A model generated the notes under the pieces. It did not search any database. It was given only the letters and a program-made list of their open reading frames with translations, and had not been told where the DNA came from. A stretch of 23,129 nt of DNA, taken from the IMG/VR virus record IMGVR_UViG_3300045997_000151, positions 1 through 23,129 of that record; one strand, given 5' to 3'. Numbering within the stretch: the stretch's first letter is position 1; each line of letters opens with the position of its first letter. Made by a program: the position numbers and the translations under genes. Positions 6,528-23,129 of the stretch are shown one piece after another. Source of the DNA: a virus.

Positions 6528-6528
<1 letters not shown>
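6307..6528 (-). CDS. Small protein of unknown function
   Basis: A 73-residue protein (MSQTEFEYRHTFQDSQVIG...). It has a predicted amphipathic helix in the middle (SEEELLARVYSAAERVAVRNQ) flanked by likely strands (FEYRHTFQDS and MAATVEYRLTYTAYH). I do not recognise a family. Its ATG overlaps the stop of the metalloprotease lipoprotein (TGATG), a strong sign that the two are translated as one unit. The frame is open further upstream, but that part lies across the protease gene in another frame and looks non-coding. Confidence 0.6.
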
Positions 6529-7474
<946 letters not shown>

Positions 7475-7478
<4 letters not shown>

Positions 7479-7873
7479 TTCGAAAGAACCCAGACCTGGC
7501 AACCGTTCGTCTCGAAGATCTCGCCCTTCTTGATGGTCACAACGCCGGGGCCACCCAGGTTGTCATTCGAGATGATCGAATCGAACTCGCCAGAGTCATT
7601 CTTCTTTCGTGCCCAGTAGCAGTTCTTGAACACGTCGTTCTCGTCAGGACCCGCAGTTTTGTACTTCCCCGCAGGCATATCCACGCCAACCTCGTACGTA
7701 CCGGTTCCGTACGTCTTCGCCTTCGACGTGGTCTTGGCAGAGGGGACAGATGCTGACGCGCCCGCGCCCGCAGACGGCGTGCTATTGCTGCTAACCGCAG
7801 CGCCGCACCCGTCGAGTGCACTCACCAGCACGAGCACACCGATCGTCTTCAACATTCTTGACTTCGTAATCAT
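7475..7873 (-). CDS. Small secreted lipoprotein with a C-terminal beta domain
   Basis: A 132-residue protein with signal peptide (MITKSRMLKTIGVLVLVSAL) and a lipobox-like LDGC (Cys23). A Ser/Ala/Thr-rich linker follows, then a domain at about 55-132 with GTYEVGVDMPAGKYKT, NCYWARKK, IISNDN, PGVVTIKKGEIFETNGC. This arrangement, with a conserved YxVGxDMPAGxY start and two cysteines, is one I know from secreted proteins of Actinomycetota; its function is not known. The start at 7873 has GGAGAGACG just before the ATG. The stop overlaps the start of the metalloprotease lipoprotein, so both are likely made together and may act together at the cell surface, for example in superinfection exclusion. 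That role is inference. Confidence 0.75.
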
Positions 7874-10586: not shown

Positions 10587-10659
10587 TGCGGAATAGCTCA
10601 GTTGGCAGAGCGCCAGGTTCATATCCTGGGTGTCACGGGTTCGAATCCCGTTTCCGCTA
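10587..10659 (+). tRNA. tRNA-Met (anticodon CAT), elongator type or Ile2-like
   Basis: All arms are present: acceptor TGCGGAA/TTCCGCT, D-stem GCTC/GAGC, anticodon stem CCAGG/CCTGG with loop TTCATAT (anticodon CAT), and T-arm ACGGG-TTCGAAT-CCCGT. The total is 73 bases and the 3' CCA is not encoded. The first acceptor pair is U1:U72, a mismatch. Initiator tRNAs also lack a 1:72 pair, but this one lacks their three G-C pairs next to the anticodon loop, so an elongator Met or a lysidine-modified Ile tRNA is more likely. It lies between two structured noncoding segments. Confidence 0.92.
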
Positions 10660-10660
10660 C

Positions 10661-12272: not shown

Positions 12273-13163
12273 ATGAGTCTCATCATTGTCGAAGGTTGTG
12301 ATGGGTCGGGGAAGAGTACGTTCGTCGCCAACCTCTGCCATATCACACCACCTGCGACGAGGGTGATTCATAGGGGACCTCTGCATCGTGATCCCATTCT
12401 CGAGTACATCGGCGACATTATGTCGTATTCGCCGATGGGCGATAGCATCATTGCAGATCGTTGGCATCTCGGTGAAATGGTGTACGGTCCGCTCTACCGT
12501 GGAGAGTCTCGACTCACGCCAGCGATGAATCTGTATGTGGAATTGTTCCTCGACAGTCGGGGCGCTGAACGAGTGTGGATGGACACGCCATTCGATATCG
12601 TTCGTTCTCGTCTACGTAATCGCGGTGAAGATTTCCTTCTCGAGCAACATCAACGGCTGGTTGTCGATTGGTACAGCGAGGCGCTCACTCCACTTCCTGC
12701 GTGGACCGCTGTGCATTGGCAGCAGAAGCCAAAGCCGAGCTTTGTTGAGAAAATTCGAGATATGGCTGAAGTTAAGGCTATGCGCGCTCGAGAATGGATG
12801 ACGCGCTTCCCGAGCTACGTCGGACCGCTTGAACCTGCACAAGTGCTCATCATGGGCGATCAGACTGTAAACCCTGCGCTTCGCAATTGGCCCATGTCGA
12901 TGGTGCCGTGGCGCGGTTCGCCCATGCACGACATTCTCATGGCGATGACGTATCTCAATTTCACCAAGGTTGGCATTCTCAGTGGAACGCAACGAGGTCG
13001 TGAGTTGTGGAATCGCCTAGGATCGCCGATCGTCTTCACTCTTGGTCACGCTGCATGGCAATACTGCATCGACCGTGAAATTCCTGCACGACGACTGGCT
13101 CTTCCTCCGCGCGGCATTCCCATCACTCAGCTCATCGAGAACATTCAGGAGCGGCAGAAGTGA
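12273..13163 (+). CDS. P-loop (deoxy)nucleotide kinase with a UDG-like C-terminal domain
   Basis: A 296-residue protein in two parts. Residues 1-170 are a nucleotide kinase like dTMP kinase: Walker A GCDGSGKST (8-16), the DRW segment in IIADRWHLGEMVYG, and a lid-like RSRLRNRGED. Residues about 186-296 (VLIMGDQTVNP, then LNFTKVGILSGTQRG, then SPIVFTLGHAAW) follow the strand order of the uracil-DNA glycosylase superfamily. The first motif is altered and the usual C-terminal HPS is replaced by PPRG, so glycosylase activity is doubtful. The gene overlaps the thymidylate-synthase-fold gene by four bases, so it may phosphorylate that enzyme's product. The kinase part is clear; the second domain is tentative. 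Confidence 0.78.
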   Translation: MSLIIVEGCDGSGKSTFVANLCHITPPATRVIHRGPLHRDPILEYIGDIMSYSPMGDSIIADRWHLGEMVYGPLYRGESRLTPAMNLYVELFLDSRGAERVWMDTPFDIVRSRLRNRGEDFLLEQHQRLVVDWYSEALTPLPAWTAVHWQQKPKPSFVEKIRDMAEVKAMRAREWMTRFPSYVGPLEPAQVLIMGDQTVNPALRNWPMSMVPWRGSPMHDILMAMTYLNFTKVGILSGTQRGRELWNRLGSPIVFTLGHAAWQYCIDREIPARRLALPPRGIPITQLIENIQERQK

Positions 13164-14011
13164 AAACATTCACGTTCCGCAACGGCGTCGATAGCCTCTA
13201 CGGTCTTGCTGAGCATCTCTTGCGCCATGGGCACAAGGTTGCGCCTAGAGGACAGGTGACGTTGGAGGAACGAAATGCCGTCATTCAGGTAACGCATCCT
13301 GATGACGTTACGATGTACGGCATAGGTCGTAACTGGAGTGATCGTCTTGCAGCTGCTGAAGCGTTACAGCTCATCGGTGGCTTCAGCGATCCCGCGGCAA
13401 TGGTTCGCATGGTACCTAGCATGGAGAACTTCGTCAATCCGCAGACTCGGAAATTCGACGGTGCTTACGGTCCACGTACCGTTGGGCAGATGCAGGCCAT
13501 GCTCACTAAGCTGCTCGATGATCGTGATTCGCGCCAGGGTGTTCTGCAAGTGTGGAACTACACCTACGACCAGATTCCGGGAAGTGTTGATTACCCGTGC
13601 ACCGTGTACATCAACTTCGCCATTCGTGATTCATCGTTGTTTATGACAACGCACATGCGATCGAATGACATCTGGTGGGGTTGGTGCTACGACCTCTTTC
13701 AGTTCACTCAGCTTGGCTGGACCGTGGCGAACTATCTCGGGCTGGAGATGGGTACGTACACGCATGTCGCTGATTCACTACATCTGTACGAGCGTGACCT
13801 CCCCAAGTTGGAAAAGCTCAGTCGTCCGATAAATGCTACACCGCAGCGACTACGTGGCATCGGACTGAAACAGAGTGCGCTACAGATTCCTACTTGGCGT
13901 GAGTTCGCACAGGAGCCAGCCTGGGAGTTCTTCTACGACATCGAGAATACGCCGTTGTCCGATACTGAGCAATGGTTCATCGATCGCAAGATATTCGAGT
14001 TCAACACGTGA
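13160..14011 (+). CDS. Thymidylate synthase-fold enzyme, probable dCMP hydroxymethylase
   Basis: A 283-residue enzyme from GTG 13160 (AGGAG eight bases upstream). The catalytic Cys147 is in DYPCTVYINF, Arg167-Ser-Asn-Asp170 matches the RSxD motif, and His208/Tyr210 match the dUMP-sugar contacts. Compared with E. coli ThyA, the stretch from Cys147 to Tyr210 aligns without a gap. The position of Asn177, which selects dUMP, is Asp178 here (GWCYDLFQF). Asp at this site is what T4 dCMP hydroxymethylase has (Asp179), and Asn-to-Asp mutants of thymidylate synthase accept dCMP. I therefore infer that dCMP is the substrate and hydroxymethyl- or methyl-dCMP the product. Neighbours are a nucleotide kinase and a dCMP deaminase. 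An ordinary thymidylate synthase is the alternative. Confidence 0.82.
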   Translation: MKTFTFRNGVDSLYGLAEHLLRHGHKVAPRGQVTLEERNAVIQVTHPDDVTMYGIGRNWSDRLAAAEALQLIGGFSDPAAMVRMVPSMENFVNPQTRKFDGAYGPRTVGQMQAMLTKLLDDRDSRQGVLQVWNYTYDQIPGSVDYPCTVYINFAIRDSSLFMTTHMRSNDIWWGWCYDLFQFTQLGWTVANYLGLEMGTYTHVADSLHLYERDLPKLEKLSRPINATPQRLRGIGLKQSALQIPTWREFAQEPAWEFFYDIENTPLSDTEQWFIDRKIFEFNT

Positions 14012-14505
14012 TCGTCTCGCCGCGTGCTACTTGGGACGAGACGTGGATGCGTCTTGCTCACGACATGGCACTTCGTAGTCTGTGCGAACGTCGCCAGATC
14101 GGTGCCGTTGTCGTTTCAGTCGACAACGCCTACAGCGTAGTCGGATACAACGGCCCTCCGCGAGGTCTGAGCATCCCTCAGCGGACTTTCAGTGTTGAGC
14201 CGACTAGTTGTACGACCTGGTGCGATAGGGGCCGCCAGTCGTCATCTATCGTCCCTCAGGACTACGACAACTGCGTTACGATCCACGCCGAAACAAATGC
14301 ATTGATCCGAGCGGACTACTCGAGAATTCAAGGTGGGTCGCTTTACGTGACATCATTCCCATGTTGGGACTGTGCCAAGAACATCTGCAACAGCGGCGTC
14401 ATTCGAGTGTTCTCGCATCTCGACCCCTCAGCCGAAGCACACCGCAAGCCGTACGTGACGAAGAATTTTATGGAGCGTTGTGGACTGGAGGTCACGGTCG
14501 TATGA
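14008..14505 (+). CDS. Deoxycytidylate (dCMP) deaminase
   Basis: A 165-residue protein with the cytidine-deaminase-fold zinc motifs: HAE at 93-95 (TIHAETNAL) and PCxxC at 118-122 (FPCWDC). A Cys-rich insert (SCTTWC, about 68-72) may hold a second, structural zinc as in T4-type dCMP deaminases. The enzyme converts dCMP to dUMP for dTMP synthesis. The GTG start at 14008 overlaps the preceding stop (GTGA). If the neighbouring synthase uses dCMP, the two compete for the same pool, as they do in T4. The frame is open upstream to 13972, but that part overlaps the previous gene. Confidence 0.9.
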   Translation: MIVSPRATWDETWMRLAHDMALRSLCERRQIGAVVVSVDNAYSVVGYNGPPRGLSIPQRTFSVEPTSCTTWCDRGRQSSSIVPQDYDNCVTIHAETNALIRADYSRIQGGSLYVTSFPCWDCAKNICNSGVIRVFSHLDPSAEAHRKPYVTKNFMERCGLEVTVV

Positions 14506-14878: not shown

Positions 14879-15003
14879 CACCTCGTCTAAAGACTGCAGG
14901 CTACCGACTCGCAATCGTCGTTGTTGTGTCGTCGTGTATAGTGTTCTGGGTCATAGTACTTATGGTCTTGATCCTAATCTGGAGATCCTATGGGCGTGCT
15001 TGA
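14869..15003 (+). CDS. Single-span membrane microprotein 2
   Basis: A 44-residue protein from GTG 14869, overlapping the end of the first microprotein by ten bases and the start of the DNA polymerase gene by 14. After MGVTPRLKTAGYR comes a hydrophobic helix of over 20 residues (LAIVVVVSSCIVFWVIVL and on) and a basic tail (WRSYGRA). The positive ends on both sides leave topology open. No good ribosome site is seen, so it would depend on coupling. The pair may form a two-component membrane unit. Confidence 0.45.
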   Translation: MGVTPRLKTAGYRLAIVVVVSSCIVFWVIVLMVLILIWRSYGRA

Positions 15004-16738
15004 TCACGTGCAACTGAAGTACGTGAGTTCGTTCGATGACCTCTGTGAATTCATGCGGTGGATCGGCGAACGTCGAAGCGTGCTCGGTGTTGACACTGAG
15101 ACTGGCGGATTTCATGCTGAGCAGCATAGGCTGCGATTGGCGCAATTCGGTGATCTGAATACAGGATGGGCTATTCCGTGGGAGAAGTGGTCTGGCGCTG
15201 TTACTGAGGTCATCGAGATGTATGATGGTCAGATGGTGCTGCATAACAGCAAGTTCGACGCGCGGTTCATTTCACACCACGGTAATATCAAGTGGCCATG
15301 GCATAAGACGAACGACACCATGACGATGGCGCATCTTCTCGACCCTCAAAGACCTAAGGGTCTAAAGCCACTCTCTGCCATGCTCATCGACCCAAAGGCT
15401 GCTTTAGCTCAGCGACTCCTCGATGATGGAATGACGGATCATCGTTGGACGTGGGACACTGTTCCTCTCGATTACCCCTATTACTGGATTTATGCAGCAA
15501 TGGATCCAGTTCTGACGTGTCACATGTACGAGAAAATGTGGCCACAGATTCGTGATCAATATGCTGGCGTGTATGACCTAGAAATGGGCGTCACCCGCGT
15601 CATCGCTGGTATGGAGGCTCGCGGCGCTCGAGTGAACCTTGAGTACTGTGTACGTACTACTGACCAGCTTCGTACGTGGGCTGCATCAGCGAGAAACTGG
15701 CTGTCGACTGAGTACGGTATCCATAGAATGACAGATCTCGAGTTGCTGAAGTTCTTCCAGGCTAATAGCGTGCCAATGCTGCGAAAGATGACAAGCAGCG
15801 GTTCACGTCAAGCGCTAGACAAAGAAGTCCTGTCATCCATCGACCATCCTGTGGCGAAGACAGTTCTTCAGATCAGGAAGGCTGAGAAGAATGTTGGTCC
15901 GTACTTCTCGAACTTCATTGAGCTCGCAGACAAGAACAATCGTGTGCATCCGAACATCTGGACTATGGGTACTCGTACTGCACGGATGTCTATTACGACT
16001 CCGGCTCTACAGACTCTCCCGCGCAAGGATCCCACAGTTCGAACAGCCTTCGTACCATCAGATGATTCCGTTCTCATCACTTGCGACTACGACCAGATTG
16101 AGGCACGTCTTACCGCACACTTCAGTGAGGATGACGGTCTCATTCACGCATTCGACGGGCCTGACGACTTCTTCTGCACGCTTGCTTCTCAGATCTTTGG
16201 GGAGCCTATCTCGAAGAAAGATCCCCGGCGGTCTCTCACTAAGAACACCATATACGGTAAGATCTACGGCGCCGGTCCGCCCAAGATGGCTCAGACAGCA
16301 GGTGTACCGCTTGAAGTAATGGAAGGCGTTGTACGTGCACTCGACACAACGTTCCCAGGGATCCTTTTACTACAGCGTCGTATCGGTGCAATGGCTCGGT
16401 CGCGAATTGCGCGTGATGGCGTTGCGTCGATCAAGACTCCGATGGGTCGTCGTCTCGTTGCGGATGATGGCAAAGACTACACACTGATGAACTACCTCAT
16501 CCAATCGCATGCCGCTGAAATCCTCAAGAAAAAGATCGTAGAGCTAGACACTGTCATTCCCGGTATGATGATTCTCCCGGTGCATGATGAACTTGTCTTC
16601 GATGTTCCGCGTGACGGGGCGGAGGATGTTCAGCGTCTGATCGAGACGACGATGGCTGATCACACAAACTATCGTGTTCCTATTACCGCCTCGTCTGATC
16701 TCCTCACCGCCGATTGGGGTCAAAAATACAGAACTTGA
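14990..16738 (+). CDS. Family A DNA polymerase with 3'-5' exonuclease
   Basis: A 582-residue replicative polymerase, without a 5'-3' nuclease domain. Exonuclease motifs are present: ExoI D35-T-E37, ExoII N86 to D90 and ExoIII Y168 to D172. Polymerase motif A is CDYDQIEAR (D366), motif B is R414...K418...Y422-G...Y426-G, and motif C is H532-D-E534. The O-helix residue equal to E. coli Phe762 is Tyr422, as in T7 polymerase. All catalytic residues are in place, so it should copy the phage DNA. The ATG has GGAG five bases upstream. The gene is followed directly by an endonuclease VII gene. Confidence 0.96.
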   Translation: MGVLDHVQLKYVSSFDDLCEFMRWIGERRSVLGVDTETGGFHAEQHRLRLAQFGDLNTGWAIPWEKWSGAVTEVIEMYDGQMVLHNSKFDARFISHHGNIKWPWHKTNDTMTMAHLLDPQRPKGLKPLSAMLIDPKAALAQRLLDDGMTDHRWTWDTVPLDYPYYWIYAAMDPVLTCHMYEKMWPQIRDQYAGVYDLEMGVTRVIAGMEARGARVNLEYCVRTTDQLRTWAASARNWLSTEYGIHRMTDLELLKFFQANSVPMLRKMTSSGSRQALDKEVLSSIDHPVAKTVLQIRKAEKNVGPYFSNFIELADKNNRVHPNIWTMGTRTARMSITTPALQTLPRKDPTVRTAFVPSDDSVLITCDYDQIEARLTAHFSEDDGLIHAFDGPDDFFCTLASQIFGEPISKKDPRRSLTKNTIYGKIYGAGPPKMAQTAGVPLEVMEGVVRALDTTFPGILLLQRRIGAMARSRIARDGVASIKTPMGRRLVADDGKDYTLMNYLIQSHAAEILKKKIVELDTVIPGMMILPVHDELVFDVPRDGAEDVQRLIETTMADHTNYRVPITASSDLLTADWGQKYRT

Positions 16739-16739
16739 T

Positions 16740-17186
16740 ATGATATCCAGTATGCAGACAAAAGAGTGCACGACATGCCACTGTGTGAAGAACGTAGATC
16801 AGTTTGACCCAGATGTTAGATACAGAACTGGATACAGATCGCAGTGTCGTGAATGTCGGTACCAGTCGTTGGAGCGATCACGCATCAATCAAGGGCTTAA
16901 GATGCGGTATGGCATTACCATTGAGATCTTTGAAGCAATGGTTATCGCCCAGAACGGCGTATGTGCAATATGCAAGAAACCTGAAACGCGTGGTAAGCGA
17001 ATGGGTAAATTCAACAATGCTCCATGGGCAACGACACGATTGTCCGTCGATCACTGCCATGTCACGGGAAAGGTTCGTGGGCTTTTGTGCCAACGATGTA
17101 ACATCGCAATTGGTCATCTCAACGACGATCCGCAGACAGCGATGAATGCTGCTGCATATCTGATGGAGCATCATGCAACAGCTTAG
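16740..17186 (+). CDS. Endonuclease VII-like (HNH-type) nuclease
   Basis: A 148-residue protein. The N-terminus has a treble-clef-like cysteine group (CTTCHCVKN and CRECR). The C-terminal half shows the recombination endonuclease VII signature: CAICKKP, then LSVDHCHVTGKVRGLLCQRC, with the His-containing beta-beta-alpha metal site, and ending GHLNDDPQTA. Such enzymes cut branched DNA such as Holliday junctions before packaging, or act as free-standing homing nucleases. Two starts are possible, ATG 16740 and ATG 16752; neither has a good ribosome site. It overlaps the RuvC-like gene by 14 bases. Its lower GC than the polymerase is modest and not proof of transfer. Confidence 0.85.
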   Translation: MISSMQTKECTTCHCVKNVDQFDPDVRYRTGYRSQCRECRYQSLERSRINQGLKMRYGITIEIFEAMVIAQNGVCAICKKPETRGKRMGKFNNAPWATTRLSVDHCHVTGKVRGLLCQRCNIAIGHLNDDPQTAMNAAAYLMEHHATA

Positions 17187-17643
17187 TGCGAGCAACCTAG
17201 TTCTTGGCGTGCTGGACCCTGGAATGACCACAGGCTTCGTCACTTATCATCTAGACTCAGGGCTGTTCATTCCTGAGCAGCTCAACTTCAACGATACGTG
17301 CATGCGCCTCATGGGGTTGGCGGTCGAGCATGCAGCGAACCTTATCGTCGTCTCAGAGTCATTCCGCATCACCATGCAGACGGCAAAGAACACGCAAGCG
17401 CCGTGGAGTCTCGAGCTAATCGGCGTTGCACGAATGGTGTCGCGGCTTTACACCGGCAGAGAGTTGCACATGCAGGATCCATCCTCCGCCAAGCGCTTCT
17501 CTTCCGACGCAAAGCTCAAGCACATGGGTTGGTATAACTCTGGCAAAGGTCATGCGAATGATGCGAGCCGTCATTTACTGCTCACGCTTGCGACGCGTGG
17601 CTGGCTCCCTGTCGAAACACTGAGACAACTCGCTGAGGCGTAG
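17173..17643 (+). CDS. RuvC-like Holliday junction resolvase
   Basis: A 156-residue RNase H-fold protein. Acidic motifs are in place: D16 in GVLDPGMTTGF, E59 in VVSESF, and the C-terminal GHANDASRHLL with the Asp of the RuvC-type HxxDA. It should resolve four-way junctions in replicated phage DNA. The ATG at 17173 has GGAG four bases upstream and lies within the end of the endonuclease VII gene. Two junction enzymes side by side is unusual. A promoter-like TAGAGT follows the stop. Confidence 0.82.
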   Translation: MQQLSASNLVLGVLDPGMTTGFVTYHLDSGLFIPEQLNFNDTCMRLMGLAVEHAANLIVVSESFRITMQTAKNTQAPWSLELIGVARMVSRLYTGRELHMQDPSSAKRFSSDAKLKHMGWYNSGKGHANDASRHLLLTLATRGWLPVETLRQLAEA

Positions 17644-17696: not shown

Positions 17697-17930
17697 ATGA
17701 AACCCATAGCGTTCTACAGCATTCCTACATGTGCTGACAGTCTCATTGCTATCGACCGATCTCGTATTCTCGTGCACATTCACGGAAAATGGAAAGGCGA
17801 TCGGCCTCTACGTATTCATCCGCACAATGTTGCCATAGCGACGGACGTGGCTGATGTTATGGAGATGCGATTGATTCCAGCGTCTGAGATTACTCCACCG
17901 CTGATGATATTTCAGGATGGACTGAGCTGA
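17697..17930 (+). CDS. Small protein of unknown function
   Basis: A 77-residue protein (MKPIAFYSIPTCADSLIAID...). A compact all-beta pattern is likely (SRILVHIHGKW, NVAIATDVADVMEMRLIPAS). No family is recognised. GGAGAGG lies close to the ATG, and the stop overlaps the helicase start (TGATG), so it is translated with the helicase. It is the first gene after a promoter-like site. Confidence 0.62.
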   Translation: MKPIAFYSIPTCADSLIAIDRSRILVHIHGKWKGDRPLRIHPHNVAIATDVADVMEMRLIPASEITPPLMIFQDGLS

Positions 17931-19720
17931 TGGCTGTTGCGATCGAGCGGAAGAGTGACGACCCTAGTCTCGTTGTCATTCGAAGCGACTTGCCGATGAG
18001 GGACAAGGACCTCATCATGTCTCTTCCTGGTTCTAAGTACGATGTGTTCAGTCACACGTACACCGCACCATTGACATGGGCAACGTGCCGGGCAATGCGA
18101 GGCATCTTTGGTACTGGACTTATCATCGGTGAAGACGTGAATGCATGGGCGTGGAACGAGCGCATGACACGTGTCGATCCAGCCATGAAGCTTCGTATTG
18201 CATGGGATGCTGAAGGCGACACTGATCTGTATCCATTCCAGCGAGCAGGTGTGCTCTTTGGTGCATTCGCGCGGCGATACCTCAACTGCGACGAGATGGG
18301 TACTGGTAAGACCGTACAGTCCATCCGCACGTTGAAGAGGCTTGCCGATTCAGGACAGCAGGTGTTCCCTTGCATCGTCGTTGCACCGAACAACATGGTG
18401 CTTACTTGGAAGAAGGAGTTCGAACGTTGGTGGCCTGGCGTTAAAGTGAATGCCATTAAAGGTAGCGCTGCAAAACGTCGTCAGATCATCGAAGGATCTG
18501 GCGATGTATGGGTCATCAACTACGAAGGTGTACGCTCTCATTCCAAGCTGGCACCGTACGGATCAGTTCGTTTGAAGCACTGCATCGTCTGCGATCCAAC
18601 AATGGCGGACGTTCCTGCGAATAAGCAGAATCGTTGCGAGCGGTGCAAGAAGGAGCTCAACTTCATCGACTGGAAGAGCCTTATCGTTGACGAGGCGCAT
18701 AAGATGAAGGACCCGAAAGCGAAGCAGACTCGCTCCATCTGGGCACTACGCACAGCGGCAACAGACAATATCTTCTGCCTAACTGGGACGGCCATCGCAA
18801 ACGCGCCGCACGACATGTGGCCTTCATTGCATCTGATCAGTCGCGAAGAGTTCCCATCCAAGAACAAGTACATTGGTCGCTACTGCCTCGCGTCTTACAA
18901 CATCTTCGGTGGCATGACCGTGATTGGGTTAGCTCCTGGGACAAAGGACGAGTTCTTTAGCATCGTCGATCCGCGCATGCGAAGGATGCCGAAAGAGGCT
19001 GTCCTTCCACATCTCCCAAAGAAGAACTATGTACAGCGGTACGTAGAGATGACGCCTAAGCAGGCCAAGGCGTATCAGCAGATGGAAGACACGCAGATTG
19101 CCATGCTGGGAGACGACCATGGCGTCGCAGTGGCCTCGAATCCGCTCGTTCAGCTAACGCGACTGACGCAGTTCGCGTCTGCCTTTGCGGAGGTCGACGA
19201 GGAAGGCAAGGTGCGATTGTCAGTGCCATCTTGCAAGGTGGACGCGATGCTGGAATTGCTTGAAGAGATGAACGACGAGCCGCTCGTTGTCTTCGCGCAG
19301 TCACGTCAGCTTATCGAACTTGCACGTGATGCGCTGAAGCGACACGACATCACCTACACGATGATCGTGGGCGGGCAGACGGTAGAGGAGAGGGAAAAGG
19401 CCAAGGACGATTTCCAGGCTGGACGAGTCCGTGTCATTCTCTGCACCATCGCTGCTGGCGGCATTGGCATCACGTTGACTCGAGCAGGCACTGCACTCTT
19501 CCTTCAGCGCAGCTGGAGCATGGTGGAGAATTCGCAGGCCGAGGACCGTGTGCATCGCATCGGCAGTGAGGTGCATGACAAGGTGAACATCGTCGACATC
19601 GTCTCAGTAGGAACGATCGAGGAACGTCAGCGCATCGTCCTCGGCACCAAGCTCGAACGGCTCGAGGAAGTCATGCGCGACCGTGAAACCATCAAGCGCC
19701 TGTTGGGGGTGAAGGCATGA
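17930..19720 (+). CDS. SNF2-type (superfamily 2) DNA helicase/translocase
   Basis: A 596-residue protein. The order of motifs is YPFQRAGV (about 101-108), Walker A DEMGTGKT (121-128), VAPNNMVLTWKKEF (motif Ia), VINYEG, Walker B VDEAH (253-257), LTGTAIAN (motif III), and in the second lobe VVFAQS, ILCTIAAGGIGITLTRA (motif V) and QAEDRVHRIG (motif VI). A Cys4 zinc finger (C218, C221, C236, C239) is inserted just before Walker B. Such proteins remodel replication forks or recombination intermediates. The start overlaps the preceding stop, and the end overlaps the next gene (ATGA). Both ATPase lobes look intact. Confidence 0.93.
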   Translation: MAVAIERKSDDPSLVVIRSDLPMRDKDLIMSLPGSKYDVFSHTYTAPLTWATCRAMRGIFGTGLIIGEDVNAWAWNERMTRVDPAMKLRIAWDAEGDTDLYPFQRAGVLFGAFARRYLNCDEMGTGKTVQSIRTLKRLADSGQQVFPCIVVAPNNMVLTWKKEFERWWPGVKVNAIKGSAAKRRQIIEGSGDVWVINYEGVRSHSKLAPYGSVRLKHCIVCDPTMADVPANKQNRCERCKKELNFIDWKSLIVDEAHKMKDPKAKQTRSIWALRTAATDNIFCLTGTAIANAPHDMWPSLHLISREEFPSKNKYIGRYCLASYNIFGGMTVIGLAPGTKDEFFSIVDPRMRRMPKEAVLPHLPKKNYVQRYVEMTPKQAKAYQQMEDTQIAMLGDDHGVAVASNPLVQLTRLTQFASAFAEVDEEGKVRLSVPSCKVDAMLELLEEMNDEPLVVFAQSRQLIELARDALKRHDITYTMIVGGQTVEEREKAKDDFQAGRVRVILCTIAAGGIGITLTRAGTALFLQRSWSMVENSQAEDRVHRIGSEVHDKVNIVDIVSVGTIEERQRIVLGTKLERLEEVMRDRETIKRLLGVKA

Positions 19721-19872
19721 CGCTAGAGGATTTCCTCAGCGAGGCACGGAATCACGATACTGCGAAACAGATCAAGATTCGCGTGGAAGGAAGTGCTCAG
19801 ATCTTCACACAACTCCATATTCATGTGATTGACTCAGATGTTACGACTATTAGCATGGTGGTGCTGCGATGA
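19717..19872 (+). CDS. Tiny protein between helicase and Cas4-like genes
   Basis: A 51-residue protein (MTLEDFLSEARNHDTAKQ...) with a helical start and a beta-rich end (IHVIDSDVTTISMVVLR). Both ends overlap neighbours by four bases (ATGA at 19717 and ATGA at 19869), which strongly suggests a real, coupled gene. No family is recognised; it may be a small partner of the helicase or nuclease. Confidence 0.6.
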   Translation: MTLEDFLSEARNHDTAKQIKIRVEGSAQIFTQLHIHVIDSDVTTISMVVLR

Positions 19873-20861
19873 CTGTCGAGTGGAATGGCGAGAAGCCGCT
19901 CACCATCAGCAACTCGGAGATTCAGACCTTCAAGGCATGTCGTCGCAAATGGTACCTCACGTACTATCTGGAGCTCGGTCTGCGGCGTGAGAGCGGGAAG
20001 GGCTGGGGTCCTCGTGAACTCGGCACACGTGTGCACGCTGCACTACATGCCTACTACGTCGAGGGTGCGAATCCCATCACTGTAGTGGACGAGATCTACG
20101 CCGACGACATCTCGTTCTTCAAGGATCGCGAATTCACTGAAGACGAAATCACTACGATCAAGAAAGAACAGGACCTCGCTCACGCGATGCTTGAGGGTTA
20201 CCTCATGTGGATCGCTGAAGAAGGTACCGATGCTGGTATGCATCTGGTGGCGGCGGAGAGTGTCGTCGAAGTTCCATCCGCAATCAAAGGTGTGCACCTT
20301 CGAGGCAAGCTAGATCAGCGTTGGCGACGAGATGTAGACGGCGCACGTGTCTTCCGCGACTTCAAGACAGTGCCAGATCTCACAACCCCAGCCAAGCTCC
20401 TTCCTCTCGACGAGCAGATGAAGTTCTATCATCTGTTGGAACGCGCTGATGCCATTGCAAAGACTGGTGCTGAGCCGCCCGACAGAACTGATGGCGCGTT
20501 ATACACGATGCTCCGTAAGGTGAAGCGAACCGCCAATGCAAAGCCGCCGTTCTACGGCCAGGTGGAGGTTCGGCATAACCGCGCTGAGCTGCTCGCAATG
20601 TGGAGTAGAGTGCATCGTGTCGTCATTGAAATCGTGAACACGAGACATGAACTCATGGCGGCTGGTGACGAGCCCGATCACAACTACATCGTTCCTCCTC
20701 GTCCGTCACGCGACTGCACGTGGGCATGTGACTTTTTCACCGTGTGCAGCATGATGGATGACGGGAGCAACTACCGCGGGCTCCTCCGCGAGTACTACAC
20801 GCACATCGATCCGCACGAGCGGTACGCCGCTCAGGACAAAGGAAAGGCGGTCACGGAGTGA
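19869..20861 (+). CDS. Cas4/RecB-like exonuclease (PD-(D/E)XK, iron-sulphur)
   Basis: A 330-residue nuclease. Active-site parts are His57 (GTRVHAALH), Asp149 (LRGKLDQRW) and Asp164-x-Lys166 (FRDFKT), the PD-(D/E)XK pattern of RecB and Cas4. Four cysteines, Cys24 near the N-terminus and Cys283, Cys287 and Cys293 near the C-terminus, match the 4Fe-4S ligands of Cas4/AddB-type proteins. It probably resects DNA ends for recombination, together with the Sak4-like ATPase and SSB-like protein downstream. No CRISPR array, cas1 or cas2 is present, so it is a phage recombination nuclease rather than an adaptation gene. The start overlaps the previous stop (ATGA). Confidence 0.88.
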   Translation: MTVEWNGEKPLTISNSEIQTFKACRRKWYLTYYLELGLRRESGKGWGPRELGTRVHAALHAYYVEGANPITVVDEIYADDISFFKDREFTEDEITTIKKEQDLAHAMLEGYLMWIAEEGTDAGMHLVAAESVVEVPSAIKGVHLRGKLDQRWRRDVDGARVFRDFKTVPDLTTPAKLLPLDEQMKFYHLLERADAIAKTGAEPPDRTDGALYTMLRKVKRTANAKPPFYGQVEVRHNRAELLAMWSRVHRVVIEIVNTRHELMAAGDEPDHNYIVPPRPSRDCTWACDFFTVCSMMDDGSNYRGLLREYYTHIDPHERYAAQDKGKAVTE

Positions 20862-20986: not shown

Positions 20987-21068
20987 GAAGTTCGGCGCGG
21001 AGAAGAAGAAGAAGAAGAAGAAGAAGAAGAAGAAGAAGAAGAAGAAGAAGGAGGAGGGTCTTAGTTGA
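20976..21068 (+). CDS. Poly-lysine microprotein on an AAG repeat
   Basis: A 30-residue frame from ATG 20976: MIAEKFGAE, then sixteen Lys, then EEGLS. Its stop overlaps the next ATG (TGATG at 21066-21070) and a GAGGGG site lies about ten bases upstream of its start. The product would be very basic and could bind nucleic acid, or the frame may exist only to couple translation. Long Lys runs can slow ribosomes. It may instead be just a repeat expansion ahead of the downstream ribosome site. Confidence 0.4.
   Translation: MIAEKFGAEKKKKKKKKKKKKKKKKEEGLS
21003..21050 (+). repeat. (AAG)16 trinucleotide microsatellite
   Basis: Sixteen uninterrupted AAG units (48 bases) form a pure purine strand that ends directly in the GGAGGAGGG ribosome site of the next gene. 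All-purine/all-pyrimidine tracts of this length can form triplex DNA and are prone to length change by slippage. Confidence 0.95.
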
Positions 21069-21274
21069 TGGCACGCATCAAGGTGATCGGCTATATGCCG
21101 CTCAATCAATTCACCCTGGAGGAGCTCGACGAGACCCGCATCAGCGGCCTCACCGAGCAGGTCGAGAACGACATCATCGAGGACATCGGCGAGAATCTCG
21201 ACGACATCTCGATGGAGCTACTCGCTGATGACGGTGACGAAGAGTTCGAAGCTGAAGTTGGCAAGATCCTGTGA
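21068..21274 (+). CDS. Small acidic protein of unknown function
   Basis: A 68-residue, strongly acidic protein (MARIKVIGYMPLNQFTLEELDE...). After a likely strand (RIKVIGYM) the rest is rich in Asp and Glu and ends in FEAEVGKIL. The ATG at 21068 overlaps the poly-Lys frame stop and has GGAGGAGGG nine bases upstream, a very strong ribosome site. It overlaps the start of the Sak4-like gene (GTGA). Charge and context would fit a small partner or DNA mimic, but nothing shows it. Confidence 0.68.
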   Translation: MARIKVIGYMPLNQFTLEELDETRISGLTEQVENDIIEDIGENLDDISMELLADDGDEEFEAEVGKIL

Positions 21275-22023
21275 CCGCACCAGCTTCGATTCGTGGACGT
21301 GCACTTTCCATTCTGGTGCATGCTGATACGAAGGTCGGCAAGTCTACCTTCGGGAACACCACTCCAGCTCCTCGTCTTTTTCTAGACGCCGAAGCGGCGT
21401 ATCGCTTCCTGCCGGGAACGAAGGTGTTCTGGGATCCCGTACGTGAAGCGCCGCCGCAATACGACGGCACGTGGGAGACATGCGTCGTCATCATCAGAGA
21501 GTACAGTGTGATGACGAAAGCGCTGGAATGGTTGGTGTCCGGCCAGCATCCATTCATCTCGGTGGTAATCGACTCTATCTCCGAGGTGCAGACGAAGTGC
21601 AAGGACCAGATCTCGCCTGATGGTGTGATGAAGATTCAGCTGTGGGGCGAGCTACTGACCCACATGGAGCGAACGGTTCGTGCGTTCCGTGACCTGACGG
21701 AGCACCCCACCCGTCCGCTGCAGGCTGTTGTCATTACGGCAATGACACAAATGAAGGACGGAAAGTTTCGTCCATTCGTGCAAGGTCAGCTGCAGGTGAA
21801 GCTGCCGTACTTCCTGGACGTCATCGGCTACATGTACGTGGAATCAGAGCCGAACGCGCAGGACCCTACCGCACCTCCCCAGAAGGTGCGTAAATTGCTC
21901 GTCACGCCTCATGTACAGTTCGAGGCGGGAGAGCGTGTTCAGGGTAGGCTTGGCGATATCGTCGTCAATCCGACCGTTCCCACAATGCTGGATGCCGTCT
22001 TTGGCCCAGCACCGAGCAACTGA
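21271..22023 (+). CDS. Sak4-like RecA-fold ATPase
   Basis: A 250-residue protein from GTG 21271. Walker A is ADTKVGKST (18-26) and Walker B is ISVVIDSIS. The small RecA-like core without N- or C-terminal additions matches Sak4-type single-strand annealing ATPases found in many phages with family A polymerases. These work with an SSB to pair single strands in recombination; the SSB-like gene is next door. The GTG overlaps the preceding stop by four bases. A role in origin or fork loading is an alternative. Confidence 0.8.
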   Translation: MTAPASIRGRALSILVHADTKVGKSTFGNTTPAPRLFLDAEAAYRFLPGTKVFWDPVREAPPQYDGTWETCVVIIREYSVMTKALEWLVSGQHPFISVVIDSISEVQTKCKDQISPDGVMKIQLWGELLTHMERTVRAFRDLTEHPTRPLQAVVITAMTQMKDGKFRPFVQGQLQVKLPYFLDVIGYMYVESEPNAQDPTAPPQKVRKLLVTPHVQFEAGERVQGRLGDIVVNPTVPTMLDAVFGPAPSN

Positions 22024-22039
22024 AAGAAGGACACCTGAA

Positions 22040-22855
22040 GTGAGTCAGTCCATCAACTGGGGAGAGCTCCTCGAGCAGTCGGGTGGCGCATTCGAGCCGC
22101 TCCCGAAGGGCACCTACGACGTGTACGTGGACACCGCTGAGGCGACCAAGTCGTCGACTGACAAGGTGATGTTCAAGGTTCGGTTCAAGGTCGAGGGTGG
22201 GCCGTACGCCGGTCGTACCGTTTACAACAACATCACGCTCACCACTGACAACCCGAATGCCCTTCGCATGTTCTTCTTGAACATGAAGGCGATGGGACTC
22301 GACCAGTCGTACTTCGCGGAGAACCCGCACCCGGACACCGTCGCCGCAGCCCTCGTCGGACAGCGTGCCACCGTGAGTGTCGATCACGGGATATACCATG
22401 GGCAGATGCGTGAGAACGTCAAGTCGCTGATGCCGCGAGCTGGTGGAATCAGTGCGGCCGGGATCATCTCTCCCGGCATCCAGGTCGCGCCTCCGGTGGC
22501 CTCTGGAGGCCCCATTGTTCCGACCCCTGGTGCCAACCCGATGGTCCCGAGCGGGATGCACCAGTCGGCGTCTGTCGTCTCTCAGCCCGCGCCACAGCCC
22601 GCTCCTGCAACGGTCGAACCGCCGGCTGTCGAGTCGACCGTGAACATCCCCGCACCGAGCAATCCGGCACCCAGCGCTGATACTGCGGCGCCTGCTCTTC
22701 CGCCCGGCATGACGCCTGAAATGCTTGCGCAATTCCAGGCGTTCCAGGCTGCACAGGTCGCACAGACCGCAGCTCCCGCTTCGGAAACCTCGGCGCAACC
22801 CGCCGTTCCGGCTGGTGCACCGCCGTTCCCGCTTCCGGACAGCGAGGCATTCTGA
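22040..22855 (+). CDS. Single-strand DNA-binding-like protein with an acidic tail
   Basis: A 271-residue protein from GTG 22040 (AGAAGGA eight bases upstream). The N-terminal 130 residues (GTYDVYVDTAEATKSSTDKV, then FKVRFKVEGGPYAGRTVYNN) fit the phage OB-fold SSB-like family placed next to Sak4 genes. A long Pro/Ala-rich linker (about 155-260) follows, and the end PLPDSEAF is a short acidic, Phe-terminated tip like that of bacterial SSB. It should coat single strands and recruit partners through the tip. An alternative start upstream would run into the Sak4 gene. Confidence 0.75.
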   Translation: MSQSINWGELLEQSGGAFEPLPKGTYDVYVDTAEATKSSTDKVMFKVRFKVEGGPYAGRTVYNNITLTTDNPNALRMFFLNMKAMGLDQSYFAENPHPDTVAAALVGQRATVSVDHGIYHGQMRENVKSLMPRAGGISAAGIISPGIQVAPPVASGGPIVPTPGANPMVPSGMHQSASVVSQPAPQPAPATVEPPAVESTVNIPAPSNPAPSADTAAPALPPGMTPEMLAQFQAFQAAQVAQTAAPASETSAQPAVPAGAPPFPLPDSEAF

Positions 22856-22962: not shown

Positions 22963-23129
22963 GTGAGAGTTGGGTACGGGAAGATTGGCCGGGTCATTGA
23001 AATGGATCAGGCGAAGTGGGGAGCGAGTGGAGGCGACAATGAACCGCCAGCGCTTCTCCTCACTCTTGCTAAGCGTAACCCTGATGTTACGTGGGTCGTT
23101 GTCGGTAGAAACTCTGGTTGGAAACCACC
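22963..23129 (+). CDS. Unknown protein, N-terminal part (cut by window edge)
   Basis: Fifty-five residues are visible from GTG 22963 (MRVGYGKIGRVIEMDQ), with GGGAG ten bases upstream. The pattern of a Gly-rich first strand, GGDNEPPALL, a helix LLLTLAKRNPD and a strand VTWVVVGRNSG loosely resembles the first half of GT-B glycosyltransferases. That is weak, and the rest lies outside the window. I recall similar starts among hypothetical proteins of actinobacteriophages. If it were a glycosyltransferase, it could act on modified cytosine, but this is speculation. Confidence 0.55.
   Translation, partial: MRVGYGKIGRVIEMDQAKWGASGGDNEPPALLLTLAKRNPDVTWVVVGRNSGWKP

What the first reader, a model, noticed from the sequence alone, without database searches (positions are those of the whole stretch)
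13160..14011. Thymidylate-synthase fold with the dCMP-selecting Asp: predicted cytosine-modifying nucleotide pathway
From Cys147 to Tyr210 the protein is gap-free against E. coli ThyA (Cys146 to Tyr209), and the dUMP-selecting Asn177 is Asp178 here. T4 dCMP hydroxymethylase has Cys148 and Asp179, the same 31-residue spacing. Asn-to-Asp mutants of thymidylate synthase are known to accept dCMP. This predicts that the phage makes 5-hydroxymethyl- or 5-methyl-dCMP, so its DNA may carry modified cytosine.
Basis: partly seen in the sequence, partly recalled or inferred. Interest (0 to 1): 0.8.

Follow-up and report, generated by a model that had tools for sequence, protein, structure and literature searches.

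The report
Phage dCMP hydroxymethylase in modification operon
This uncultured phage very probably encodes a T4-type enzyme that hydroxymethylates cytosine nucleotides before they enter its DNA, next to kinase, deaminase and (at the cut end of the contig) glycosyltransferase-like genes, so its DNA probably carries disguised cytosines; this is a well-understood strategy in a large phage lineage where it has hardly been described.

Summary
Observation confirmed. ORF 13160-14011 is a thymidylate-synthase-fold protein (Pfam E 1.8e-16); Cys147-Tyr210 aligns without gaps to ThyA Cys146-Tyr209, and Asp178 sits on Asn177. Four positions separate enzymes of known type: T4 gp42 and MilA read D-C-T...D; SPO1- and M6-type dUMP hydroxymethylases D-C-N...N; ThyA L-C-H...N. 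The window and all 82 readable IMG/VR relatives in the main alignment read D-C-T...D. Asp144 matches T4 Asp145 (activates the water), so hydroxymethylation is favoured over methylation; Arg125/Ser168 favour deoxy- over ribo-CMP. In the tree the window lies in an all-Asp clade of 51 rows (100/99). The gene is coupled by GTGA overlaps to a nucleotide kinase and a dCMP deaminase, in a replication module conserved across dozens of relatives. Four of 24 relatives examined carry a separate ThyX. AXL3, an Asp-type relative, has DNA cut by only 2 of 37 restriction enzymes, both with A/T-only sites. The Asp signature is already published (MetaGPA 2021): new member of a known kind. Enzyme activity and DNA chemistry remain untested.

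The parts
13160..14011 (+). dCMP hydroxymethylase (thymidylate-synthase fold); GTG start; Glu67, Tyr103, Arg125, Asp144, Cys147, Thr148, Arg167, Ser168, Asp178, His208, Tyr210
12273..13163 (+). P-loop nucleotide kinase (N-terminal half; phrog_761 'thymidylate kinase' 2.2e-14) with an unassigned C-terminal domain; stop overlaps the next gene's start (GTGA); proposed 5hm-dCMP kinase
   Evidence: substrate inferred from gene order
14008..14505 (+). dCMP deaminase (PF00383 3.2e-18, PF14437 7.7e-10), HAE and PCxxC zinc motifs; proposed start GTG 14008 overlaps the synthase stop (GTGA), rather than the mechanical ATG 13972
14990..16738 (+). family A DNA polymerase with 3'-5' exonuclease domain, same module
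17173..17643 (+). RuvC-like resolvase, by homology to the DSL-LC01 gene so annotated
17930..19720 (+). SNF2-type DNA helicase of the module
19869..20861 (+). PD-(D/E)XK exonuclease of the module
21271..22023 (+). Sak4-like annealing ATPase of the module
21911..22855 (+). DUF669 / single-strand-binding-like protein, last complete gene of the module (the mechanical start is probably too early)
22963..23129 (+). first 55 codons (GTG start) of a glycosyltransferase-like gene cut off by the contig end; 74% identical to the full-length copy in L034/L103
   Evidence: profile score 66.6 bits; family links to PF13524, phrog_7922 and T4 beta-glucosyltransferase:

Best explanation
The gene encodes a T4 gp42-like dCMP hydroxymethylase. 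It uses 5,10-methylene-tetrahydrofolate: Cys147 attacks C6 of dCMP, Asp178 recognises and protonates the cytosine edge, and water (helped by Asp144) adds to the exocyclic methylene to give 5-hydroxymethyl-dCMP. The co-translated kinase probably phosphorylates this product towards 5hm-dCTP for the phage's own family A polymerase. The dCMP deaminase diverts the rest of the dCMP to dUMP for normal thymidylate synthesis. After replication, the glycosyltransferase-like enzyme whose gene begins at 22963 probably caps the hydroxymethylcytosine with a sugar, protecting the DNA from host nucleases. Shown here: fold, residue signature, clade, gene order, translational overlaps, presence of the truncated gene. 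Inferred: enzyme activity, kinase substrate, polymerase use, sugar transfer, protection.
For: Closest solved structures are the CMP 5-hydroxymethylase MilA (2.7e-20), above all canonical synthases. Cys-3/Cys/Cys+1/site 177 reads DCTD as in T4 gp42 and MilA, against DCNN in SPO1, M6, phiEa2809 and LuckyBarnes and LCHN/LCVN in ThyA and Stahl. T4 Asp179 sets dCMP specificity and Asp145 activates the water (PMC6400193). Arg and Ser at MilA Lys133/Ala176 give deoxy preference (PMC5175136). All 82 relatives of the main alignment are DCTD; all-Asp clade 100/99. MetaGPA tied Asp177 and position 147 to contigs with modified cytosine, and reported co-occurrence of this domain with PF00383, PF14437 and PF01503 (PMC8670742). 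The window's deaminase matches PF00383 and PF14437; relative L034 has PF01503 just downstream. ThyX in 4 of 24 relatives. AXL3 DNA cut by 2 of 37 enzymes, both A/T-only (PMC7504290). Truncated glycosyltransferase-like gene.
Against: No biochemical data for this protein or any close relative. Sequence identity to T4 gp42 is only about 20%. T4 Arg124 is Gln126 and T4 Ser94 is Gly101 here, though SPO1 has the same Gln and MilA the same Gly. Thanatos-1, annotated as a dCMP hydroxymethylase, has Glu rather than Asp at Cys-3, so that position is not absolute. AXL3 is a distant Asp-type relative (30% identity), and its DNA chemistry is unknown. The contig is a 23 kb fragment. The structure model of the glycosyltransferase-like family is of low confidence (pLDDT 48) and its fold search gave no significant match.
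Confidence: 0.8

Rival explanations
1. dCMP 5-methyltransferase (XP12-like): Asp178 selects dCMP, but hydride transfer gives 5-methyl-dCMP, so the DNA carries 5-methylcytosine.
For: Asn-to-Asp mutants of thymidylate synthase methylate dCMP (cited in PMC8670742), so Asp alone does not decide the product.
Against: Asp144 replaces ThyA Leu143 and matches T4 Asp145, as in the hydroxymethylases T4 gp42, MilA and SPO1 gp29. Glycosyltransferase-like genes follow in relatives and begin in the window; a sugar on the base would need a hydroxyl acceptor. The XP12 sequence was not in the collection, so the contrast could not be tested directly.
Confidence: 0.08
2. dUMP-directed enzyme: thymidylate synthase, or dUMP hydroxymethylase making 5-hydroxymethyluracil, as the annotations of related phage genes say.
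For: Databases name the family thymidylate synthase; PW916's copy is annotated deoxyuridylate hydroxymethyltransferase; the neighbouring dCMP deaminase makes dUMP.
Against: Asp at 177 and Thr at 147 instead of Asn with His or Asn; no extra residue in the loop before position 177, which SPO1, M6, phiEa2809 and LuckyBarnes have. ThyX present in 4 of 24 relatives. T4 combines dCMP hydroxymethylase with dCMP deaminase too (general knowledge).
Confidence: 0.08
3. CMP (ribonucleotide) hydroxymethylase like MilA, acting in small-molecule or RNA chemistry rather than DNA.
For: MilA is the best PDB match.
Against: MilA's ribose-selecting Lys133 and Ala176 are Arg125 and Ser168 here; the gene lies in a DNA replication module.
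Confidence: 0.03

Closest known systems
T4 gp42 dCMP hydroxymethylase (PMC6400193)
   Same: Catalytic Cys, Glu, Tyr; Asp at the base-selecting site; Asp at Cys-3; Thr after Cys; a glycosyltransferase gene in the same genome region
   Different: About 20% identity; extra C-terminal region; Gln for Arg124, Gly for Ser94; set in a Pol A/Sak4 replication module rather than T4's
Asp177-type phage thymidylate synthase homologues of MetaGPA (PMC8670742)
   Same: Asp at 177, non-His at 147; company of PF00383/PF14437 deaminase and, in relatives, PF01503
   Different: MetaGPA's tested partner was a 5hmC carbamoyltransferase; here glycosyltransferase-like genes stand downstream, and no data on modification exist
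Actinomycetia phage DSL-LC01 module and Gordonia phages Forza, GodonK, GMA2
   Same: Same kinase-synthase-deaminase-Pol A-helicase gene order (in full in DSL-LC01); Asp-type enzyme
   Different: 30-38% identity; annotated only as thymidylate synthase; DSL-LC01 has a different glycosyltransferase-like family plus UDP-galactopyranose mutase
MilA CMP 5-hydroxymethylase (PDB 5jnh, 5b6d)
   Same: Best-scoring solved structure; same DCTD signature
   Different: Ribose-selecting Lys/Ala are Arg/Ser here
T4 beta-glucosyltransferase (for the truncated 3' gene)
   Same: Family profile scores 11.7 bits on its C-terminal region, best of 2000 shuffles 7.9; two members match phrog_7922 beta-glucosyltransferase
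   Different: No significant overall sequence match; only 55 residues in the window; fold not established

Membership tests
dCMP hydroxymethylase (T4 gp42 type) | Thymidylate-synthase domain with catalytic Cys and Glu | tested here: met
   PF00303 1.8e-16; Cys147 and Glu67 aligned to T4 Cys148, Glu60
dCMP hydroxymethylase (T4 gp42 type) | Asp at the base-selecting site (T4 Asp179) | tested here: met
   Asp178
dCMP hydroxymethylase (T4 gp42 type) | Asp at Cys-3 (T4 Asp145) | tested here: met
   Asp144
dCMP hydroxymethylase (T4 gp42 type) | Deoxyribose-selecting Arg and Ser | tested here: met
   Arg125, Ser168
dCMP hydroxymethylase (T4 gp42 type) | Forms a clade with T4 gp42 | tested here: inconclusive
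   T4 gp42 is a long branch apart from the window's clade; its place is unsure
dCMP hydroxymethylase (T4 gp42 type) | Makes 5hm-dCMP; 5hmC in DNA | not testable with these tools
   Needs assay and mass spectrometry
Thymidylate synthase (ThyA) | Asn177, His147, Leu143 | tested here: not met
   Asp178, Thr148, Asp144
dUMP hydroxymethylase (SPO1 gp29 type) | Asn at 177 site, Asn after Cys, one extra loop residue | tested here: not met
   Asp178, Thr148, no extra residue
CMP hydroxymethylase (MilA) | Lys133 and Ala176 for ribose | tested here: not met
   Arg125, Ser168
dCMP methylase (XP12) | Residues that make methyl rather than hydroxymethyl | tested here: inconclusive
   XP12 sequence not found; Asp144 argues against
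DNA beta-glucosyltransferase (truncated gene at 22963) | GT-B fold with UDP-sugar site | tested here: inconclusive
   Family members match PF13524 at 6.8e-6 and phrog_7922 at 0.002; fold model too weak

The most novel reading that the evidence does not exclude
A large, mostly uncultured phage lineage, probably of Actinobacteria, makes its DNA with hydroxymethylcytosine capped by sugars, using at least three families of uncharacterised glycosyltransferase-like enzymes exchanged at one fixed place in a conserved replication module. One of these families starts at the window's end and may transfer a new sugar or linkage.
Probability: 0.4. Interest if true: 0.6.

Novelty: new member of a known kind. 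Interest (0 to 1): 0.42.

Why it matters
It turns a gene routinely annotated as thymidylate synthase into a testable DNA-modification prediction for a whole lineage with cultured members (Gordonia phages). It offers a simple residue rule for re-annotating phage synthase homologues: Cys+1 and position 177, Thr/Asp for cytosine, Asn/Asn for uracil. It would account for the unexplained restriction resistance of phage AXL3, and it points to uncharacterised glycosyltransferase-like families that could be useful as DNA-labelling tools.

Tried and rejected
Megablast of the whole window against phage records: no match. XP12 dCMP methylase under a remembered accession: not held. Sequence-profile searches of the glycosyltransferase-like families against PDB: nothing useful. 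Profile-profile comparison of the window-type family with the other two: no similarity. Structure model of the window-type family: pLDDT 48, and its fold search had no match at E<=0.001; T4 beta-glucosyltransferase at rank 1 with E 0.22 is not counted as evidence. No dCTPase/MazG gene was found among the window ORFs scanned; relatives carry one downstream of the cut. Literature search for hydroxymethylcytosine in Gordonia phages found no report in the open library. L082 was left out of residue counts because its open frame reads off-frame in the conserved block.

Full report
What the window is. The window is the whole of a 23,129-base virus record, in all likelihood a fragment; it has no near DNA match among phage records. 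Packaging genes lie on the minus strand and a replication and nucleotide module on the plus strand. The closest annotated relative is Actinomycetia phage DSL-LC01, followed by Gordonia phages, so an actinobacterial host is likely but not shown.

The observation. ORF 13160-14011 encodes a 283-residue thymidylate-synthase-fold protein (PF00303 1.8e-16; phrog_5131 5.5e-42). Against E. coli ThyA the local score is 124, with at most 61 in 300 shuffles. The stretch Cys147-Tyr210 aligns to Cys146-Tyr209 without a gap, and Asp178 falls on Asn177. In a multiple alignment the same column is Asp179 of T4 gp42, and the catalytic residues line up: Glu67/Glu60, Tyr103/Tyr96, Cys147/Cys148, His208/His216, Tyr210/Tyr218.

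Which substrate and product. The best-scoring solved structures are the CMP hydroxymethylase MilA, ahead of all canonical synthases. Four positions (Cys-3, Cys, Cys+1, site 177) sort the reference enzymes: D-C-T-D in T4 gp42 and MilA; D-C-N-N in SPO1 gp29, M6, phiEa2809 and LuckyBarnes; L-C-H-N in ThyA and L-C-V-N in Stahl. That M6 and phiEa2809 belong to phages with 5-hydroxymethyluracil-derived bases is general knowledge; SPO1 gp29 is so noted in its record. The window reads D-C-T-D. Published work gives the roles: Asp179 sets dCMP specificity and Asp145 activates the attacking water in T4 (PMC6400193); Arg and Ser at the sites of MilA Lys133 and Ala176 favour deoxyribose (PMC5175136). The window has Asp144, Arg125 and Ser168. 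The expected product is therefore 5-hydroxymethyl-dCMP. Exceptions exist: Thanatos-1 has Glu at Cys-3 and Riparian combines Thr with Asn.

Family context. An alignment search of IMG/VR found 551 relatives, of which the best 80 were fetched. Together with three relatives fetched earlier (L001, L002, L009) and with one frame-disturbed row (L082) left out, all 82 read D-C-T-D. One of the two fetching patterns contains D..CT, so those three positions are partly selected; Asp178 is not. In a maximum-likelihood tree the window groups with L023 and L034 (100/98) inside an all-Asp clade of 51 rows (100/99), apart from the dUMP hydroxymethylases and ThyA; the places of T4 gp42 and MilA are long-branch and unsure.

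Neighbourhood. The synthase GTG (13160) overlaps the kinase stop, and the synthase stop overlaps a GTG (14008) that is the likely deaminase start, both as GTGA. This suggests coupled translation of kinase, hydroxymethylase and deaminase. The order kinase, synthase, deaminase, Pol A, RuvC-like, helicase, exonuclease, Sak4, single-strand-binding-like protein recurs in DSL-LC01 and in most fetched loci. Every one of 24 long relative records has exactly one PF00303 match, and four of them also have ThyX, including GMA2 and AXL3, so there at least the Asp-type enzyme is not needed for dTMP.

The 3' end. Downstream of the single-strand-binding-like gene the relatives carry one of several glycosyltransferase-like families, often followed by a MazG/dUTPase-type pyrophosphohydrolase. 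For one family (L027) a confident model (pLDDT 84) matches GT-B enzymes; T4 beta-glucosyltransferase is the top Foldseek hit (2.1e-5), but other GT-B enzymes score as well (Z 16.6 for SenB against 16.1), so this shows a GT-B fold and not a DNA substrate. The window itself ends inside a different family: GTG 22963 starts 55 codons that match its profile at 66.6 bits and are 74% identical to the copy in L103/L034. All 38 loci found with that family have it directly downstream of the Sak4 and single-strand-binding-like genes. Five of 31 members match PF13524 glycosyl transferase (best 6.8e-6), two match phrog_7922 beta-glucosyltransferase (0.002), and the profile touches the C-terminal region of T4 beta-glucosyltransferase at 11.7 bits against a best of 7.9 in 2000 shuffles. 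The glycosyltransferase reading is likely but not proven; its model is poor.

Independent phenotype. Phage AXL3 carries an Asp-type enzyme beside kinase, pyrophosphohydrolase and deaminase genes. Its DNA was cut by only 2 of 37 enzymes, the two with A/T-only sites (PMC7504290). Its authors called the gene thymidylate synthase and noted the redundant ThyX. An Asp-type dCMP hydroxymethylase explains both points, although AXL3 is a distant relative (30%) and its bases were not identified.

What is known. MetaGPA (PMC8670742) already showed that Asp at position 177, and position 147, mark synthase homologues on contigs with modified cytosine, and that these co-occur with PF00383, PF14437 and PF01503. 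The window's deaminase matches the first two, and L034 has the third. The finding is thus a new member of a known kind, in a lineage for which I found no report of hydroxymethylcytosine in the open library. The uncharacterised glycosyltransferase-like families are the least known part.

Limits. No activity, no DNA chemistry, no complete genome. The kinase's substrate and the sugar step are inferred from gene order.

Noticed in passing
L016:6001-7551 (Brevibacterium phage LuckyBarnes gp41): Published as a dCMP-hydroxymethylase (PMC6588365), but it has Asn at site 177 and Asn after the Cys, like SPO1 and M6 dUMP hydroxymethylases; its two glycosyltransferases may act on hydroxymethyluracil.
   Followed up: partly
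L014:5998-6807 (AXL3 gp28) and L015:3280-4098 (PW916): Annotated thymidylate synthase and deoxyuridylate hydroxymethyltransferase, but both are D-C-T-D; a cytosine-modifying role fits AXL3's restriction resistance.
   Followed up: yes
window 12273-13163, residues about 165-296: The kinase has a second, C-terminal domain shared with L023, DSL-LC01, L024, L027 and AXL3 but missing or short in Gordonia phages; no Pfam match.
   Followed up: partly
window about 21002-21050: A pure (AAG)n tract that encodes a run of lysines in a short reading frame starting at ATG 20977.
   Followed up: no
window 6528-7502, minus strand: Putative secreted lipoprotein with an Excalibur domain and a matrixin-like metalloprotease motif.
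   Followed up: no
window 10587-10660: tRNA-Met (CAT) gene between the two gene blocks.
   Followed up: no
window 16674-17186: Endonuclease VII-like HNH protein between the polymerase and the RuvC-like gene.
   Followed up: no
L004:20951-22048: DSL-LC01 has a UDP-galactopyranose mutase between two related glycosyltransferase-like genes, which hints at galactofuranose as a possible sugar donor there.
   Followed up: no
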